Assembly: GCA_003339415.1 (NCBI GenBank)
Contig: PDHQ01000045.1
Span: 124,070 to 188,069 of the forward strand
Length of the DNA: 64,000 nt
DNA from: Ophiocordyceps camponoti-saundersi (nom. inval.)
Taxonomy: Eukaryota > Ascomycota > Sordariomycetes > Hypocreales > Ophiocordycipitaceae
Reading direction: 5' to 3'
Part shown: positions 12,790 through 22,284 of the stretch, in pieces
Layout of the letters: each line of letters starts with the position of its first letter
Position numbering within the stretch: the stretch's first letter is position 1
Notes under the pieces: model-generated
The model's database searches: none
What the model was told of the DNA's origin: nothing
Seen by the model: only the letters and a program-made list of their open reading frames with translations
Program-made: the position numbers and the translations under genes

Positions 12790-13254
12790 GTTCCCCCCCC
12801 CCCCCCCCCCCCCCCTCTCCTCTCCCTCCTCCCCCCCCCCCTATAACCCCCTGTCCTCACAGCCTCCTCCCCCCCCTCCACTCCAAAAATCCTCCCCCTC
12901 AATCTCTTCCCGCTCCTCCTTCTTCTCAATCACACACTTTATAGCGCTTCATCCTGTCTCATCTTCCTTTACCATCTCTCTCTCACACTCACTCCTCTTC
13001 CTCTTCCTCCTGCAACTCAACTCACCTCACTCGCTCATTCATCACTCACTCATTCGCTCACTCTCCCCTTCTCGACCGTTCCATCTTCGCCCTTAGCTCT
13101 CCTCCTCCTCCTCCTCCTCCTCCTCTCTCTCTCTCTCTCCCCCTCCCCCCCCCCACTCTCTCTCGTTTACTACAAGTCAAGTAGTCAACCAAGCAACACA
13201 CATTCTCACACACACCCCTTCCATCCCCTCGTTGACCAACATACCTGACCAATC

Positions 13255-13295
<41 letters not shown>

Positions 13296-13539
13296 AAGAC
13301 ACGCACCTAAAAAGAAAAAGGGGACGCACAAACCAAGAGAAAATTCTCGCAAACGACGACGGCCAGCCAAAACATGGTCCTGAACCTGCTTCGTCCTTCT
13401 TCTTCTTCTTCTTCTTCCTTTCTCTCTTCTTCTCCCTTTTCATCATCTTCTTCCTCCCCTCATCACCATCCTCCTCCTCCATCTCCTCCTCCTCCTCCTC
13501 CATCATCGTCGCCATACAAGACTTCCTTCTTGCGACAAG
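12787..13539 (+). other. Pyrimidine-rich stretch between the Nrd1/Seb1-like gene and the cyclin gene
   Basis: Starts with a C run of about two dozen bases right after the splice donor (12793-12816), followed by more C/CT blocks, CTC and CT repeats (13101-13140, 13258-13291), TTC repeats near 13400 and CTC repeats near 13470-13500. No RRM-like coding sequence is visible on the plus strand. The right part probably serves as promoter and leader of the cyclin gene. Confidence 0.65.
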
Positions 13540-15249: not shown

Positions 15250-16008
15250 TCAGGGATTCAATCGCTCGATACTCCACATCCCTCCCGCCTCGTCCCACGA
15301 GTACAGAAAGCGATCATGAAGTCTACTATTCCTCCCCTGCCAAAACTCCACCCTCTCAGGCCTCAATCGCAGCCCGCCCCAAAAATCAGGGACGGGAATC
15401 TTGTCCACGCCCGCGAAGCGCTCCTCCATCTTCTGCACGGCCCTCTCGAGCGCTACCCTCCCGTCGTCGCCTTCCACGCCCTGATCTGGAGTCAGGACCT
15501 CGCTCTGGCGGGAAGCCCATGCTCCGACGCGGCTTGACCTCACGCGCGAGTCGAAGTATGCCTGGCTCTCGGCGGCCGATAACATGTCGACTTTCCCCTC
15601 TACCCTCACCTGTCGCTGGAGGGTTTCCCAGTGGAAGACGAGGGCTGCGTTGGGGTTCGTGCGTAGGTCTGATGATTTTCGTGAGGTGGAGAGGTTCGTG
15701 TAGATTATGAAGCCGCTTTCGTCTAGCTCTTTCATGTACACCACTCGAGCCGATACCTGGCCCGTGGGAAGGGAGGAGGTGGCTAGGACGCACGTCTCTG
15801 GGTGGGGGACTTGCTTCGATGCCTCGTCGTACCAGGTTTGGAATTGCGTTGCTGGTGAGGAGGGGTCGAGTTGGGAGAGGGTTAGTTTGCTTAGGGTGAA
15901 TTGCTCGGCTTGTGATGATGGTGCTGGGGGTTTTTGTTGGTTGTGGGTGTTAGCTTGAACTGTTGTGAGGCTTGTTCGTTTTTTTTTCTCTTCGCTCGAG
16001 CTTTTCAT
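15250..16008 (-). CDS. PDX3: Pyridoxamine-5'-phosphate oxidase
   Basis: Single exon, 252 residues, complete. The enzyme is FMN-dependent. It oxidises pyridoxine- or pyridoxamine-5'-phosphate with O2 to pyridoxal-5'-phosphate in the vitamin B6 salvage pathway. Family landmarks are all present: ARVVYMKELDESGFIIYTN (FMN/substrate strand), KSSDLRTNPNAALVFHWE, QVRVEGKV, SRVGAWASRQSEVL, and the C-terminal block FWGGLRLRPERVEFWQGR...RLHDR ending in IERLNP, close to the RLxP end seen in bacterial and yeast enzymes. The first 40 residues are hydrophilic (SSSEEKKKR) with no clear targeting signal. Its product is the cofactor of the histidinol-phosphate aminotransferase encoded at 41.4 kb, although the two genes are far apart. 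A GA microsatellite starts about 15 bp upstream of the ATG. Confidence 0.95.
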   Translation of the reverse strand: MKSSSEEKKKRTSLTTVQANTHNQQKPPAPSSQAEQFTLSKLTLSQLDPSSPATQFQTWYDEASKQVPHPETCVLATSSLPTGQVSARVVYMKELDESGFIIYTNLSTSRKSSDLRTNPNAALVFHWETLQRQVRVEGKVDMLSAAESQAYFDSRVRSSRVGAWASRQSEVLTPDQGVEGDDGRVALERAVQKMEERFAGVDKIPVPDFWGGLRLRPERVEFWQGRNSRLHDRFLYSWDEAGGMWSIERLNP

Positions 16009-16493
16009 GATTCACAGACATGAAGAGAGAGAGAGAGAGAGAGAGAATAAAGGTCATAGAACGCACAGATCAGCTTCCCCCTCTCCTCGTTACCACTCCC
16101 ACTCCCACTCCCACTCCCGGCCTGACCGCCACTGTTCCGGACCGGGAGCGTCATCCTCAGACGAAGACGAGTACAACGCAGTCGTGGTGGTAATAGACAG
16201 CGAGTGAGCACAGCACGCATCGGACGTTGCAACCTCTCCAATCGCTCGTTACACCCGCCTCGATGGCAGGAGGAATTTACAACATAAATTCCCTCGTCCT
16301 CTGATTCCAACATCGTCGTCGTCCAACGTATCATCTAATTTTTCCGGTTTCCGGCTCACGTGCCTCCTTGTCATATGTATGTACGTCATACCTGCCGACC
16401 TGCCCTGTCCAGGCCGCCCTACCACGGCAGAATGAATGGCTTGCTTACCAACACACAAGAGATTCTCACGACATCTCTCCCCTGCTCACCCCT
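16009..16493. other. Upstream region of PDX3 and 3' flank of the CPSase-ATCase gene
   Basis: No gene. A GA run at 16024-16046 adjoins the PDX3 start. A CCCACT repeat lies near 16097-16117. The rest is ordinary non-coding sequence before the terminal exon of the pyrimidine gene. Confidence 0.55.
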
Positions 16494-16578
16494 TCACGGA
16501 ATCATCACCAGCGCTAGCAGAGCCATCCGACAGTATAGACCATACCGCATCTATCCCGTCATATATCAGTCAGCCTCG

Positions 16579-16610
<32 letters not shown>

Positions 16611-19600
16611 AACGGAAAACAAAAAAGACTCACCTGTCGGAAATAGGCCGCCCGCTGGTCAAAGTCAACCTCCTCGGCAACCTCCTCGTTGCGCGGCAGC
16701 GGATGCATCACCACCATCGAACTCTTGGCGTGCTTCAGCACCGCATTGTCCACCCGGTACGAGTCCCGCACCCGCTCGTACAGCGCCTCGTCCGCGAACC
16801 GCTCCCGCTGTACCCGAGTACAGTACAGCACGTCGCTCCGACCCGTCACCTCGGGTGTCAGCGCCGCAGATTCGCACAGCAGCTGTCCCGACGTCGCCAG
16901 CCGCTCCCGCATCTCCGCCGGTAACTCCAGCCCCGCCGGCGCTACCAGCTGCACCTTGACCTGGTAATGCCGCAGCAGCCGCACCAGCGAGTGCACCGTC
17001 CGCCCGTGTAGCAGGTCGCCCACAAACGTCACCGTCAGCCCCTGTACCGTCCCTAGCTCCTCGCGGATGGTAAAGAGGTCGAGGAAGGCCTGCGTCGGGT
17101 GCTCGCCGCTGCCGTTGCCCGCGTTGATCACCGGCACGTCGCTGTACTTGGCCGCCACGTCGATCGAGGCCTCGTCCGGGTGCCGGAGCACAATCGCGTC
17201 ACCGTAGCAAGCCAGCGTCCTTAGCGTGTCCTGAAGAGTCTCCCCCTTTTGCGCAGACGACCGCGAGGCCGCCACGGCCACCGTCCGGCCGCCGAGCCGC
17301 TGCATGGCCGCGTCGAACGAGGCCGACGTCCGCGTCGAAGGCTCGTAGAAGAGAGTGCACAGCACCTTGCCGCGTAGCAGCTTCAATACGCCCTCGCGCT
17401 GGACCCCGAGCCGCATCTCCTGAGCCACGGTGAAGAGCAGGTGTAGGTCCGCCCTCGTGTACTGTTCCACCGCCAGCACATTGGCCTTTTTGAAGCACGA
17501 AGGCTGCGTAAGGAGCTGCATCACCGACGCGCTGATTGATGATCCGTCTTCAAAGAATCCCACCGCCCCTTCCCGAGTCAGAGGTCTCGCGGGATGATGA
17601 TGATGGTCCGCCCCCCCTGACGGCATCACTGTCGTCATCGTCGTCGTCGACGGCGCGTCGGGCGCCGGCTCTTGCGTCACCAGACAGTCGCGCTTCGACA
17701 CGTCCAGGTAGTCGTGCCGCGCAATGGCCTCGACCAAGAGCTTGGCGTTCTTCACGTTGGTTACCAGCGGTATCTGAAAGTCGACCGCCATGCGCCGCGT
17801 CTTGTAGCCCTTGCTCATGTAATTGGCCGGCCGGCGGTACTTGTTGTTGGACGGCAGGTTGATGTACAGGTCGATGGTGTTCTTGGCCAGGTGCTGCGTG
17901 AGGGAGAATTCAGACTCCATGTCTTCGTCTCGGCCGAGCACCTCGAGGAACTGCGCCTGAACGCCGTGCTCCTCGAGGAAGTCGGCGGTACCCGCCGTCG
18001 CGAACAGCTTGTAGCCGATGCGCTGCAGCTTCTGCACCGACGGCAGCATCTCCCGCTTGTCCTTGTACGAACCGATCGAAAGCAAGACGTTGGCCTTGGG
18101 CACCTTGAAGCCCGTCGACAGCAGCGCCTTGAGGTAGGCCTCGTACTTGTCGACGCCGAAGCAGGCCACCTCGCCCGTCGACGCCATCTCCACGCCCAGC
18201 ACCGGATCGGCCCCGGAGAGGCGCGAGAAGCTAAACTGCGGCACCTTGACGGCCACGCAGTCTGGGCCCAGCGTCGTCTCCGGGTACTCCTCGAACGGCA
18301 GGCCGGCGATGGCCTTGGTCGCCATCTCGATCAGGTCCACGCCCATGACCTTGGACACGAAGGGGAACGACCGTGACGCCCGCACGTTGCACTCAATCAC
18401 CTTGATGTCGTTATCCTTTGCGATGAACTGGATGTTGAAGGGCCCCGTCACGTTGAGAGCCGCTCCAATCTTGCGCGTCGCCTCTTCGATGCGCTCAATC
18501 GTCGTCGCCTCCAGGTCCTGCGGCGGCAGGATCAGCGTCGCGTCGCCCGAGTGCACCCCGGCGTTCTCCACGTGCTCCGAGATGAAATGGCCAACGACGA
18601 CGCCGTCGCTGGCCACGGCGTCCATCTCAATCTCCTTGGCGTTCTCGATATACTTGGAGATGACGACCGGATGCTCGCGCGACACCGAGGCCGCCTGGGC
18701 CAGGTAGTTGACCAGATCCTTCTCGGAGTAGACCGTGTTCATGGCCGCGCCCGACAGCACGTACGAAGGCCGGACGAGGACCGGGTAGCCGACCGTCTTG
18801 CAAAAGTCCCTGGCCTCCTCGAAGCTGGTGAGCTCTCGCCAGGTCGGCTGGTCGACCTCGATACGGTCCAGCATGCGCGAGAACTTGTACCGGTTCTCCG
18901 CCATGTCGATCATCTCCGGCGACGTGCCTAGCATCCTGACGCCGGCGCGATGCAGCGGGAGGGCGATGTTGTTGGACGTCTGGCCGCCCATGGCACCCAA
19001 CACGCCGTCGGCGCCCTCGAGCTGGTAAATGTCCAACACCGTCTCCAGGTCTATGTTCTCAAAGTACAGCCGGTCGGCCTCGTCGTAGTCGGTGCTCACC
19101 GTCTCCGGGTTGAAGTTGACCATGACCGTCTTGAAGCCCGAAGTGCGCAGGGTACGGATCGCTCGGACTGAGCACCAGTCGAACTCGACCGAAGATCCGA
19201 TGCGGTAGACGCCGGAGCCGAGCACCATGATGCCGCGGTCGTCAAACGTCACGTCGTGCTCGCTGCCGTTATAAGTGAGGTAGAGGTAATTGGTCTTGGC
19301 GGCCACCTCGGCGGCGACGGTGTCGATCTGCTTAACCCACGGCCGGATGCCGGCCTCCTGGCGAAGACGGCGAACGGCGATCTCGTTGGAGTCCCAGAAC
19401 CTGGCCAGCTGTCGGTCGCTGAAGCCGAGTCGCTTGGCCTCCAGCATGACCTGGGGCGAGCGGGCGATCTCGCGCGTGGTGCGGCCGGCCATGTCCTTGG
19501 CGAAATCGCTGAGGCTCTTGAGCTTGCGTAGAAACCACCTGTCAATCTTGGTCATTTCCCAGATCTTGTCGACAGAGTAGCCCTCGTGCATGGCGTTCGC

Positions 19601-22284
19601 TATGGCGAATAGTCGCTGGTCCGAAGGCGTCTGCAGCTCGTCGTCGATGCTCATCAATGCTTTGGTCGGGCCGAAGCCAAGGTTGTGGAAATCGATGGCC
19701 CGGATGGCCTTTTGGATAGCCTCCTCGAACGAGCGGCCGATGCTCATGACCTCGCCCACGCTCTTCATCGACGACCCCAGCTGCGTCGAGACCCGGGTGA
19801 ACTTATTCAAGTCCCAGCGAGGCATCTTGACGACGACGTAATCGAGCGAGGGCTCGAAGCAGGCGCAGGTCTCCTTGGTGACGGAATTGGACAAGTCCTT
19901 GAGGGGGATTCCGAGCCCGAGCTTCGCGGCGATGAAGGCCAGGGGGTAACCGGTAGCCTTGGAAGCCAACGCCGATGACCGCGATAGGCGGGCGTTCACC
20001 TCGATGATGCAGTATTCCCTGGAAAAGGGGTTAAGGGCGTATTGGATATTGCACTCGCCCACGACACCGAGATGCCGGATAACGTTGACAGCCGTGGTGC
20101 GCAGCATGTTGTAGTCCTCGTCGGATAAGGTTTGTGAGGGTGCCACGACGATAGAATCGCCCGTGTGGATGCCGAGGGGGTCAAAATTCTCCATATTGCA
20201 GACGGTGATGCAGTTGTCCTGCGCATCGCGGACGACCTCGTACTCAATCTCCTTCCAGCCCTTCATGCTGCGCTCTATGAGAACCTGAGGACTGGCGGCG
20301 AAGGCCTTGTTACACAACTCGACCAGCTCGCGCTCGTCGTTGGCGAAGCCGCTGCCGAGGCCACCCAGGGCGTAGGCGGCACGGACGATGACGGGGAAGC
20401 CGATGTCCTTGACCGCTGTCAGGGCTTCATCCACGCTGCAGGCGGAGGCCGACTTGGCGCACTTTTCGCCGATGGACTCTATGCTTCGGGCGAAGAGCTC
20501 GCGGTCCTCGGTGGTGATGATGGTGTCGATGGGGGTGCCGAGGACCTTGACTCCAAGACCCTCGAACTCATCCTTGAGCTGGATACCGACCTGGAGGGCG
20601 GTTTGGCCGCCAAAGGTGACGTAGATGGCGTCCGGGCGCTCGTAGTGGATGACCTTACGGACGAAGTCGGCGTTGACGGGCAAGAAGTAGACCTTGTCGG
20701 CGAGGCCCTGAGACGTCTGTATGGTGGCGATGTTGGGGTTGATGAGGACGGTGTAGATGCCCTCCTCTTTGAGCGCCTTGATGGCCTGGCTGCCCGAGTA
20801 GTCAAACTCGCCGGCCTGACCGATGCTGAGTCCGCCGCTACCGAGGACAAGAGCCTTGGTGACGGAGACGCGGGGATGCAGACGCTCGTTGTCGTCGGCA
20901 AGGCCGCCGGGGAACTCGACAGGCTTCTGCAGGAGAGCAGGCTGTTGCGAGCAGGCGACGACGGCGTCGAGGAAGACGTCGAAGAGAAACTCGGTATCCC
21001 GCGGACCGGGAGCGCTCTCCGGGTGAAATTGGACACTGAAGTAGGGCCGATGGCGGTGCATGATGCCCTCGTTGCTGCCATCGTTGGCGTTGACGAACAG
21101 CTCAACCCATTCGGCGGGCAGCGAGTCGGCGTCGACGGCGTATCCGTGATTTTGCGACGTGATGTGGCACTTTCCCGTGACCATGCTGGTACAAGGAATG
21201 TTTTGACCACGGTTACCGAACTTCATCTTGATCGTCTTGGCTCCGGCGGCTCTTGCGAGGAGCTGGTGTCCGAGGCAGATGCCGAAGACGGGTGTCTTGT
21301 TACGATCCATGGCGGCGCGGAGGTTGGCCGCAGTGACGTCGAGTAGGGCAGGATCACCGGGACCATTGGAAAGGAAAAGGCCGTCATATTCGACACCGGT
21401 CAAGTCGTGATTCCAGGGACAGACGAGGACCTCGACGCCGCGGCGCAGGAAGCAACGCAGCTGGTTATACTTGATACCGACGTCAAGACACAGGATGCGG
21501 AGGGGACGGCCTGAAGGATGCGAGCGGGTAGCCGCAGACGTCGGCGGTGGAGAGTATAGCTTGGGCGTCTCGATGGAGACTGGAGGTGGTGAGTAAAGAG
21601 GTCCGCCGACAAGGGGGAAGGGGAAGGGGGTTATGAAGACGGACCCTGGGCGACAAGGTTTTGCTCGTTAGGGTCGGCCCAATCGATCAAGGCGAAGTTG
21701 TCCAAGGAAGCGGAAGGCAAAGCAGGCGGGATGCGAGCCACACCGTCACCATTCGTAGGCAAGGGGCGAGTCTGCAGCCTCATGCGGCCGAGCATACTCC
21801 CCTGTTCCCGAATCTTCTTTGTAAGGGCCCGAGTATCGACGCCATACATTGCAGGAATACGCTGCTCCTTCAGCCAGTCACCCAACGAAGACTTTGCCAG
21901 AAAATGTGAAAAGTCATGACCGCAATAAGAAGCAACGACAAGTCCAGCTACGTGAATCCTAGCCGACTCGATATGCGCCGGCAGTTCGCGACAGACGTCA
22001 TCGTCAACAGCCTCGGGCGAGGGAACACCATAGTTTCCGATAAGAGGGAAGGTCAAGACGAGTATCTGTCCCCGATATGACGGATCCGTCAACGATTCGG
22101 GGTAGCCGACCATGCCCGTTTGAAAGACGAGCTCGCCTGCGACGCTGGCCTGAGCGCCGAAACTGTATCCCTGGACGGCCGAACCGTCGGCTAGCTCGAG
22201 GCAGACGAGGCCTTCGTCGGCGACGCTGGCCATGCGCGCCGAGGCCGGGGGCAGCGCATTGGCGACGGCGACGGCGGTGGCCAT
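16494..22284 (-). CDS. URA2: CPSase-ATCase multifunctional protein of pyrimidine synthesis, lacking the DHOase-like linker domain
   Basis: Three exons on the minus strand: 22284-21645, 21579-16634 and 16550-16494, for about 1,880 residues. The protein catalyses the first two steps of UMP synthesis. The glutamine amidotransferase domain (residues 1 to about 430) has nucleophile Cys315 in GICLGHQLL and His399/Glu401 in FHPES. Two ATP-grasp carbamoyl-phosphate synthetase halves follow ([14 protein letters not shown]; then [18 protein letters not shown]), then the MGS-like regulatory segment (about 1360-1500). The aspartate transcarbamoylase domain (about 1570-1880) shows [24 protein letters not shown] and HPLPRNEE, and the tail exon encodes [18 protein letters not shown]. 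Fungal homologues are about 2,200-2,240 residues because an inactive dihydroorotase-like domain lies between CPSase and ATCase. Here only about 65 residues (encoded around 17,510-17,715, Thr/His-rich) bridge them, in frame. The first intron has a weak donor (GTCCGT). The ATG at 22284 is the first in frame; the open frame upstream is CT-rich leader. Confidence 0.95.

What the first reader, a model, noticed from the sequence alone, without database searches (positions are those of the whole stretch)
17500..17730. Pyrimidine CPSase-ATCase without its dihydroorotase-like linker domain
The frame runs without a break from the CPSase regulatory domain (ending [23 protein letters not shown]) through about 65 Thr/His-rich residues into ATCase ([32 protein letters not shown]). 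In fungal Ura2/pyrABCN proteins these points are separated by roughly 400 residues containing an inactive DHOase-like domain. The total here is about 1,880 residues against about 2,200-2,240 usually. The junction is in low-complexity sequence, as expected of an in-frame deletion. The active sites of both enzymes look intact. If real, a conserved but catalytically dead scaffold domain has been dispensed with, which bears on channelling and UTP feedback.
Basis: partly seen in the sequence, partly recalled or inferred. Interest (0 to 1): 0.75.

Follow-up and report, generated by a model that had tools for sequence, protein, structure and literature searches.

The report
Pyrimidine enzyme missing its dead domain
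An ant-infecting fungus makes its first two pyrimidine-building enzymes as one fused protein that lacks the dead "scaffold" domain usually found in the middle, and related moulds appear to have lost the same domain many times over, which makes them ready-made tests of what that domain is for.

Summary
The window (a fungus close to Ophiocordyceps camponoti-leonardi) encodes a 1,880-aa CPSase-ATCase on the minus strand. Only 60 residues separate the CPSase regulatory domain from ATCase, in one unbroken frame. The ~340-aa inactive dihydroorotase-like (DHO-like) domain is absent from the gene and was not found elsewhere in the assembly. A separate Ura4-type dihydroorotase gene is present.

It is not an assembly gap and not peculiar to this fungus. 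All named Ophiocordycipitaceae and Clavicipitaceae proteins retrieved share it (one clade of 26 rows, support 1.0). So do a 78-row clade whose named members are Dothideomycetes, and scattered Hypocreales, Sordariales and Leotiomycetes. Of 331 assignable proteins (searches partly steered by length), 123 lack the domain and 208 have it; none is intermediate. An 88-row tree needs 13 changes, at least 9 forced by well-supported branches; polarity indicates losses.

ATCase tends to change faster after loss (moderate evidence), as expected if the dead domain constrained it. Most likely the protein is an ATCase trimer carrying CPSase arms on flexible linkers, without the DHO dimers proposed to pair trimers into hexamers; this is inferred. 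Ten full-text searches showed no report of the loss in the listings seen.

The parts
21645..22284 (-). exon 1 of the CPSase-ATCase gene (start codon at 22284); N-terminal part of the glutaminase module
   Evidence: spliced translation, 96.5% identical to P0001 over 1,866 aligned residues
16634..21579 (-). exon 2: rest of glutaminase, both CPSase halves, MGS regulatory domain, linker and most of ATCase in one open frame
16494..16550 (-). exon 3: last residues of ATCase ([18 protein letters not shown], stop TGA)
   Evidence: near-identical C-terminus in spliced models of relatives
20966..21490 (-). glutamine amidotransferase domain (PF00117)
17759..18052 (-). MGS-like regulatory domain (PF02142), the last domain before the junction
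17507..17686 (-). 60-residue Thr/His-rich linker standing where DHO+ proteins have about 400-460 residues with the DHO-like domain; probably a degenerated remnant of the DHO-ATC linker; predicted disordered
   Evidence: pLDDT <50 over residues 125-181 of the model
16494..17506 (-). aspartate transcarbamoylase domain (PF02729 + PF00185), interrupted by intron 2 at 16551-16633; motifs intact
   Evidence: (solved fungal ATC 5nnn, E 5.9e-147)

Best explanation
SHOWN: the gene is the orthologue of fungal Ura2/pyrABCN in which the inactive DHO-like domain (~340 aa, just after the MGS domain) is missing in frame. The absence is shared by all sampled named Ophiocordycipitaceae and Clavicipitaceae, so the loss most likely happened once in their common ancestor. 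It is one of at least nine state changes that well-supported branches require across the Pezizomycotina sampled. A separate Ura4-type dihydroorotase gene is in the genome. INFERRED: the protein still does glutamine -> carbamoyl phosphate -> carbamoyl aspartate on one chain, with Ura4 doing step 3. Its core is the ATCase trimer, each subunit carrying a CPSase arm on a flexible linker. The pairing of trimers that DHO dimers are proposed to make in CAD-like hexamers is absent or replaced by CPSase-CPSase contacts. Removing the dead domain freed or forced ATCase to change at positions otherwise held constant.
For: Unbroken frame and 60-aa junction. No DHO-like sequence found elsewhere, with internal positive control. 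Bimodal gap among 331 proteins: 123 DHO-less (16-104 aa), 208 DHO+ (396-459 aa), none between. Window clade: 26 rows, support 1.0. 88-row tree: 13 changes, at least 9 forced. In sister species the linker aligns with the DHO-ATC linker of DHO+ proteins, so the domain was excised cleanly. P0005, P0016, P0019, P0021, P0049, P0061, P0099 start inside exon 2 and read through the last splice site, which implies unspliced translations with contiguous junctions. Ura4-type gene at G000:C184:38322-39549. The DHO-like domain of a DHO+ fungus lacks the metal-ligand motifs seen in sturgeon CAD (ligands recalled). Relative rates in 10 loss clades (one-sided sign-flip): ATC x1.8 (p 0.012), MGS x1.6 (p 0.006), CPS x1.4 (p 0.014), GATase x1.1 (p 0.15). 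ATC/CPS change ratio at conserved columns 4.55 against a mean of 2.32 in held-out DHO+ clades, 2 of 150 as high. Published: mutations breaking DHO dimerisation split CAD hexamers into trimers (PMC9863657, passages).
Against: Quaternary structure, channelling and UTP control are untested. The excess of ATC over the rest is borderline (p 0.059; 7 of 150 without the 78-row clade and P0206/P0215). 3 of 10 clades show no ATC excess and in one (P0130) ATC is slower than in its sister. In the held-out control the MGS excess vanishes (33 of 150 as high) and GATase is below the control mean (ratio 0.75 against 1.91), so that control and the relative-rate test do not agree on every module. In the window's own clade P0006 shows no ATC acceleration. 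The losses in P0046, P0053, P0118, P0121, P0122, P0124/P0152, P0126-P0130 and P0132 rest on gene models whose DNA could not be read here. Dihydroorotase activity of the Ura4-type protein is inferred from sequence.
Confidence: 0.8

Rival explanations
1. Assembly or gene-model artefact: ~1 kb of DHO-like coding sequence was collapsed or skipped at this locus.
For: Low-complexity junction; several other groups rest on gene models only.
Against: The window's junction is a single open frame in raw DNA. The same architecture occurs in 25 other proteins of the clade. Seven proteins of two clades look like unspliced translations. No intermediate lengths.
Confidence: 0.02
2. Fission or relocation: the DHO-like domain now lies on a separate gene and still acts in trans, as pseudo-DHO does in Pseudomonas.
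For: Pseudomonas aeruginosa ATCase is inactive without a separate pseudo-DHO chain (PMC7053772, passages).
Against: A DHO-like query finds nothing in the 45.7-Mb assembly at E <= 10 while ATCase residues in the same query are found. The 8 amidohydrolase matches lie on other contigs and none came up with the DHO-like query.
Confidence: 0.03
3. Loss without architectural consequence: CPSase dimerisation alone holds the hexamer, the DHO-like domain was a passive spacer, and the faster ATCase is only general relaxation.
For: The loss recurred and is tolerated. CPSase dimerisation is named as a possible contributor to CAD assembly (PMC9863657). CPS also accelerates, and the ATC excess over the rest is borderline.
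Against: The DHO-like domain is conserved in DHO+ species (mean identity 0.68 against 0.36 for the adjoining linker). The acceleration is weakest in the distant GATase and strongest in ATC, and the ATC/CPS ratio exceeds nearly all held-out DHO+ sets.
Confidence: 0.3
4. The DHO-less form is ancestral in Pezizomycotina and the domain was gained repeatedly.
For: The Dothideomycetes and P0206/P0215 branch off next to the root in the 88-row tree, whose only outgroup (sturgeon CAD) is very long.
Against: The DHO-like domain sits at the same place in DHO+ fungi and in sturgeon CAD and is homologous to the animal CAD dihydroorotase.
Confidence: 0.01

Closest known systems
Fungal CAD-like protein (Ura2 / pyrABCN); solved pieces 5nnl ('Inactive dihydroorotase-like domain') and 5nnn/8bpl (ATC), from Chaetomium thermophilum by PMC9863657 and recall
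   Same: Same order of glutaminase, CPSase, MGS and ATCase; orthologous by tree; separate dihydroorotase gene.
   Different: The inactive DHO-like domain between MGS and ATCase is absent.
Animal CAD (active DHO domain)
   Same: Same fusion of CPSase and ATCase; MGS domain before the junction.
   Different: CAD has a DHO domain with its ligand motifs where this protein has a 60-aa linker (sturgeon CAD P0289).
Pseudomonas class A2 ATCase with pseudo-DHO subunit
   Same: ATCase in a system whose relatives pair it with an inactive DHO homologue (PMC7053772, passages).
   Different: There the dead partner is needed for ATCase activity; here it is gone.
DHO-less CPSase-ATCase of Dothideomycetes (Alternaria, Parastagonospora, Zymoseptoria, Aureobasidium and others)
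   Same: Same architecture.
   Different: Separate clade on the trees; shorter linker, 26-35 aa against 54-93 aa in the window's clade.

Membership tests
Fungal CAD-like CPSase-ATCase (Ura2/pyrABCN) | Glutaminase + two CPSase halves + MGS + ATCase on one chain | tested here: met
   1,880-aa spliced protein
Fungal CAD-like CPSase-ATCase (Ura2/pyrABCN) | Inactive DHO-like domain between MGS and ATCase | tested here: not met
   60-aa gap, no DHO-like match in gene or assembly. It is therefore an orthologue by descent with a variant architecture, not a canonical CAD-like protein
Fungal CAD-like CPSase-ATCase (Ura2/pyrABCN) | Orthology by descent | tested here: met
   trees; the only other OTCace_N gene found in the assembly is on another contig, C733
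Fungal CAD-like CPSase-ATCase (Ura2/pyrABCN) | Dihydroorotase encoded by a separate gene | tested here: met
   PyrC-dimer-type (Ura4-like) exons at G000:C184:38322-39549, each below the NCBIfam cut-off because matched exon by exon; HVHLR and GSDSAPHP motifs read in the frames; activity not tested
Fungal CAD-like CPSase-ATCase (Ura2/pyrABCN) | UTP feedback, carbamoyl phosphate channelling, hexameric assembly | not testable with these tools
   needs purified protein
DHO-less variant shared with Clavicipitaceae/Ophiocordycipitaceae | Common descent of the loss | tested here: met
   26 rows one clade, support 1.0; SH-aLRT 99 and 100 in subsets of 14 and 13 rows; shared linker

The most novel reading that the evidence does not exclude
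The dead DHO-like scaffold of fungal CAD is evolutionarily disposable: at least nine lineages, including a whole class (Dothideomycetes as sampled), are natural domain-deletion mutants. Each loss rebuilt the enzyme, from DHO-bridged hexamer to a trimer or CPSase-bridged assembly, and was followed by compensating change in ATCase. Channelling and UTP control therefore do not need the domain.
Probability: 0.45. Interest if true: 0.78.

Novelty: new variant of a known kind. Interest (0 to 1): 0.62.

Why it matters
[quoted passage not shown] In Pseudomonas a dead DHO partner is even needed for ATCase activity (PMC7053772, passages). The repeated, clean loss reported here gives matched pairs of relatives with and without the domain (e.g. 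Stachybotrys elegans P0053 / S. chartarum P0025; P0046 / P0055). What a pseudoenzyme domain contributes to assembly, channelling and feedback thus becomes directly testable, and the two large clades can show how the rest of the enzyme adapts. It also warns that size filters may hide such variants: one published URA2 survey applied a 10% size cut-off (PMC4625875, passage), which may have excluded proteins ~17% shorter than yeast Ura2 (2,214 aa, recalled).

Tried and rejected
Assembly artefact, fission and repeated gain were tested and rejected (see rivals). A first hand-picked relative-rate table (ATC 276 against 127 unique changes, larger in 10 of 11 contrasts) overstated the effect. It was redone with random sampling from the tree (10 of 12 clades usable; the 78-row clade and P0206/P0215 skipped for want of an outgroup) and with held-out DHO+ clades, which give a weaker result: same direction for ATC, not for MGS. 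Five ATC columns changed in 3 or more loss clades were not interpreted, since I know of no fungal DHO-ATC complex structure and the conservation threshold is arbitrary. Ten of 341 proteins lacked an anchor and were left out (331 counted); three of the ten are partial models that contain DHO-like sequence (P0125, P0163, P0165). Eighteen further rows, all DHO+, were dropped from the large tree for shortness (313 of 331); two of 90 chosen rows (P0073, P0120) were therefore missing from the 88-row tree. In the unsteered search 31 of 120 are DHO-less. Sclerotinia borealis (P0126) lacks the domain while Botrytis cinerea (P0125, partial) has its first half: recent loss or model error, unresolved. Structure prediction (mean pLDDT 73.9, part of the MGS domain poorly modelled) was used only for linker disorder and ATC fold; no fold search was run. 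Ten literature searches showed no title or abstract opening reporting the loss; several listings were capped (5 of 1,515, 10 of 631, 20 of 103) and subscription papers are not held.

Full report
WHAT IS THERE. The window lies in a 45.7-Mb assembly of 733 contigs. On the minus strand a single frame (16559-21667) runs from the glutaminase through CPSase and its MGS domain into aspartate transcarbamoylase without a stop. With two introns (21644-21580 and 16633-16551) the protein is 1,880 aa; the stretch between ...LDVSKRD and QPSCFKK... is 60 residues, at 17686-17507. It is 96.5% identical to a protein of Ophiocordyceps camponoti-leonardi (P0001). Pfam finds PF00117, PF25596, PF02786, PF02787, PF02142, PF02729 and PF00185 and nothing between MGS and ATCase; since DHO+ fungal proteins carry no Pfam label there either, that silence is weak evidence. 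The ATCase matches the solved fungal ATC 5nnn (E 5.9e-147). Glutaminase and ATCase motifs are intact (which residues are catalytic is recalled).

THE DOMAIN WAS NOT FOUND IN THE ASSEMBLY. A DHO-like query gave no match at E <= 10. Because an empty answer alone shows nothing, the query was repeated with 45 ATCase residues attached. The ATCase part was found at the window locus (query 335-381, E 1.4e-14) and the DHO-like part again was not. The pathway's third step is covered by a PyrC-dimer/Ura4-type gene at G000:C184:38322-39549 (below that family's cut-off because it matches exon by exon). Reading its frames shows the HVHLR and GSDSAPHP motifs, and the one internal TGA lies in what looks like a short intron. 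The only other OTCace_N gene found is on contig C733, presumably ornithine transcarbamylase.

NOT PECULIAR TO THIS FUNGUS. The best 120 of 2,794 proteins matching residues 1200-1677 split into 31 with a gap under 100 aa and 89 with a gap of 380-439 aa. The short ones include Ophiocordyceps (O. camponoti-leonardi, unilateralis, camponoti-floridani, australis), Purpureocillium, Tolypocladium, Drechmeria, Metarhizium, Claviceps and Moelleriella, i.e. Ophiocordycipitaceae and Clavicipitaceae (family looked up for Moelleriella and Drechmeria; the rest recalled). Fusarium, Trichoderma, Cordyceps, Beauveria and Stachybotrys chartarum keep the domain. The alignment shows a clean excision. Sequence is colinear to the end of MGS (RDFQ.., RDYQTS..), the ~340 residues from RTVVLPGL to about GKDMSSH are missing, and in sister species colinearity resumes in the DHO-ATC linker (KTPEMKA..ESPRR.. 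against SPPVKPT..ESPQARR). The window's Thr/His-rich stretch looks like a degenerated form of that linker and is predicted disordered (pLDDT below 50 over model residues 125-181; ten-residue means in the ATC part are 62-97 except the last).

IT IS RECURRENT. Restricting candidate length to 627-1995 aa brought out complete DHO-less models outside this clade: many Dothideomycetes, several Leotiomycetes, and Sordariales (Copromyces, Cladorrhinum, Echria) (all 90 new proteins with both anchors are DHO-less). Restricting length to 1993-6342 aa with a Dothideomycete query returned Eurotiomycetes, Lecanoromycetes, Leotiomycetes, Pezizomycetes and others, with no named Dothideomycete (best 120 of 2,088 seen, 43 of the 120 without an organism name; classes recalled). 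Its only DHO-less row, P0288, is labelled Quercus suber but groups inside the Dothideomycete clade. Over all 341 proteins (340 hits plus the window), 331 have both anchors: 123 DHO-less including the window (gap 16-104) and 208 DHO+ including sturgeon CAD (gap 396-459), none in between, and no conflict with a direct DHO-like match. On a FastTree of 313 rows built without linker and DHO columns, DHO-less rows form 12 maximal clades: 78 (support 0.93; named members Dothideomycetes, looked up for Venturia and Bathelium, otherwise recalled), 26 (the window's clade; 1.0), 5 (0.66), 4 (1.0), 2 (1.0), 2 (1.0) and six single rows. No DHO+ row falls inside the 78-row clade. On an 88-row IQ-TREE (short search) the state needs 13 changes and at least 9 are forced by branches with SH-aLRT >= 95. 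A 60-row, mainly Hypocreales tree needs 5, at least 4 forced. Polarity is loss: the DHO-like domain of DHO+ fungi is homologous to the CAD dihydroorotase (E ~1e-56) and sits at the same place in the sturgeon CAD used as outgroup. Compared with that CAD, the Fusarium domain has lost the metal-ligand motifs (HVH -> AAF, AHAE -> TDAK, ICHV -> VTSV, TDHAPH -> IGSLPF; ligand identities recalled).

HOW SECURE ARE THE LOSSES. The window's junction is raw contiguous DNA. P0005, P0016, P0019, P0021, P0049, P0061 and P0099 begin inside what is exon 2 here and end by reading through the last splice site, so they look like unspliced translations with contiguous junctions; four belong to the window's clade and three to the four-row group that the tree places among Hypocreales. 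Most other losses rest on gene models; a mis-called intron is unlikely in every case but is not excluded case by case.

WHAT FOLLOWS THE LOSS. Relative-rate contrasts (loss clade against DHO+ sister with DHO+ outgroup, random sampling, 10 usable clades of 12) give mean rate ratios of about 1.8 for ATC (one-sided sign-flip p 0.012), 1.6 for MGS (0.006), 1.4 for CPS (0.014) and 1.1 for the glutaminase (0.15). ATC in excess of glutaminase and CPS is p 0.059; 3 of 10 clades go the other way, and in P0130 ATC is slower than in its sister. At columns at least 95% conserved in DHO+ proteins, the ATC/CPS change ratio is 4.55 in the 12 loss clades against a mean of 2.32 in 150 sets of 12 held-out DHO+ clades (2 reach it). 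Without the 78-row clade and P0206/P0215 it is 3.74 (7 reach it). The same control gives no MGS excess (33 of 150 reach it) and a glutaminase ratio below the control mean (0.75 against 1.91). I read this as moderate evidence that the dead domain constrained ATCase. In 24 DHO+ representatives the domain itself is conserved: mean pairwise identity 0.68, against 0.78 for ATC, 0.87 for CPS and 0.36 for the linker.

MECHANISM. Published work holds that ATC trimers and DHO dimers together build CAD hexamers, that mutations breaking DHO dimerisation release trimers, and that CPSase dimers may contribute (PMC9863657, passages). In Pseudomonas a pseudo-DHO chain is needed for ATCase activity (PMC7053772, passages). 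The most likely working state here is an ATC trimer with three CPSase arms on flexible linkers, no DHO bridge, possibly paired through CPSase. This is inference. Two observations bear on channelling: it is reported for S. cerevisiae and N. crassa (PMC6245113, passage), and Copromyces, of the same family as Neurospora, lacks the domain; whether N. crassa does was not tested.

VERDICT. Observation confirmed; interpretation partly right. It is a new architectural variant of a known protein rather than a new kind, and it is one instance of a recurrent loss that I did not find in print (ten searches listed in Tried and rejected; titles and abstract openings of the papers listed, plus passages of four papers).

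Noticed in passing
window 15250-16011 (-): Next open frame downstream on the same strand matches the pyridoxamine-phosphate-oxidase-type tail (PF01243/PF10590) fused to the CPSase-ATCase models of Ophiocordyceps P0001 (72% identity over 206 residues) and Cladobotryum P0036 (56% over 233). The neighbourhood is conserved; the fusion looks like a gene-model error but read-through was not excluded.
   Followed up: partly
P0206, P0215: Two unnamed proteins (source ena) form a long-branched DHO-less lineage (stem 0.23, 0.35) outside the named classes; identity unknown.
   Followed up: no
P0288: A DHO-less CPSase-ATCase labelled Quercus suber (cork oak) in nr groups inside the Dothideomycete clade; it looks like a fungal contaminant of the plant assembly.
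   Followed up: partly
P0121: A cluster of 19 sequences represented by Copromyces (Sordariaceae) lacks the DHO-like domain, so Neurospora crassa pyr-3, of the same family, may lack it too.
   Followed up: partly
P0125 and P0126: Botrytis cinerea (partial model) carries the first half of the DHO-like domain whereas Sclerotinia borealis has none but keeps a 104-aa linker: a recent loss or a model error.
   Followed up: no
PMC4625875: A published evolutionary survey of URA2 used a 10% size cut-off, which may have removed DHO-less proteins (passage).
   Followed up: no
window about 16578-16607 and 13090-13300: (GA)n/(TC)n microsatellites in the last intron of the gene and in neighbouring DNA.
   Followed up: no
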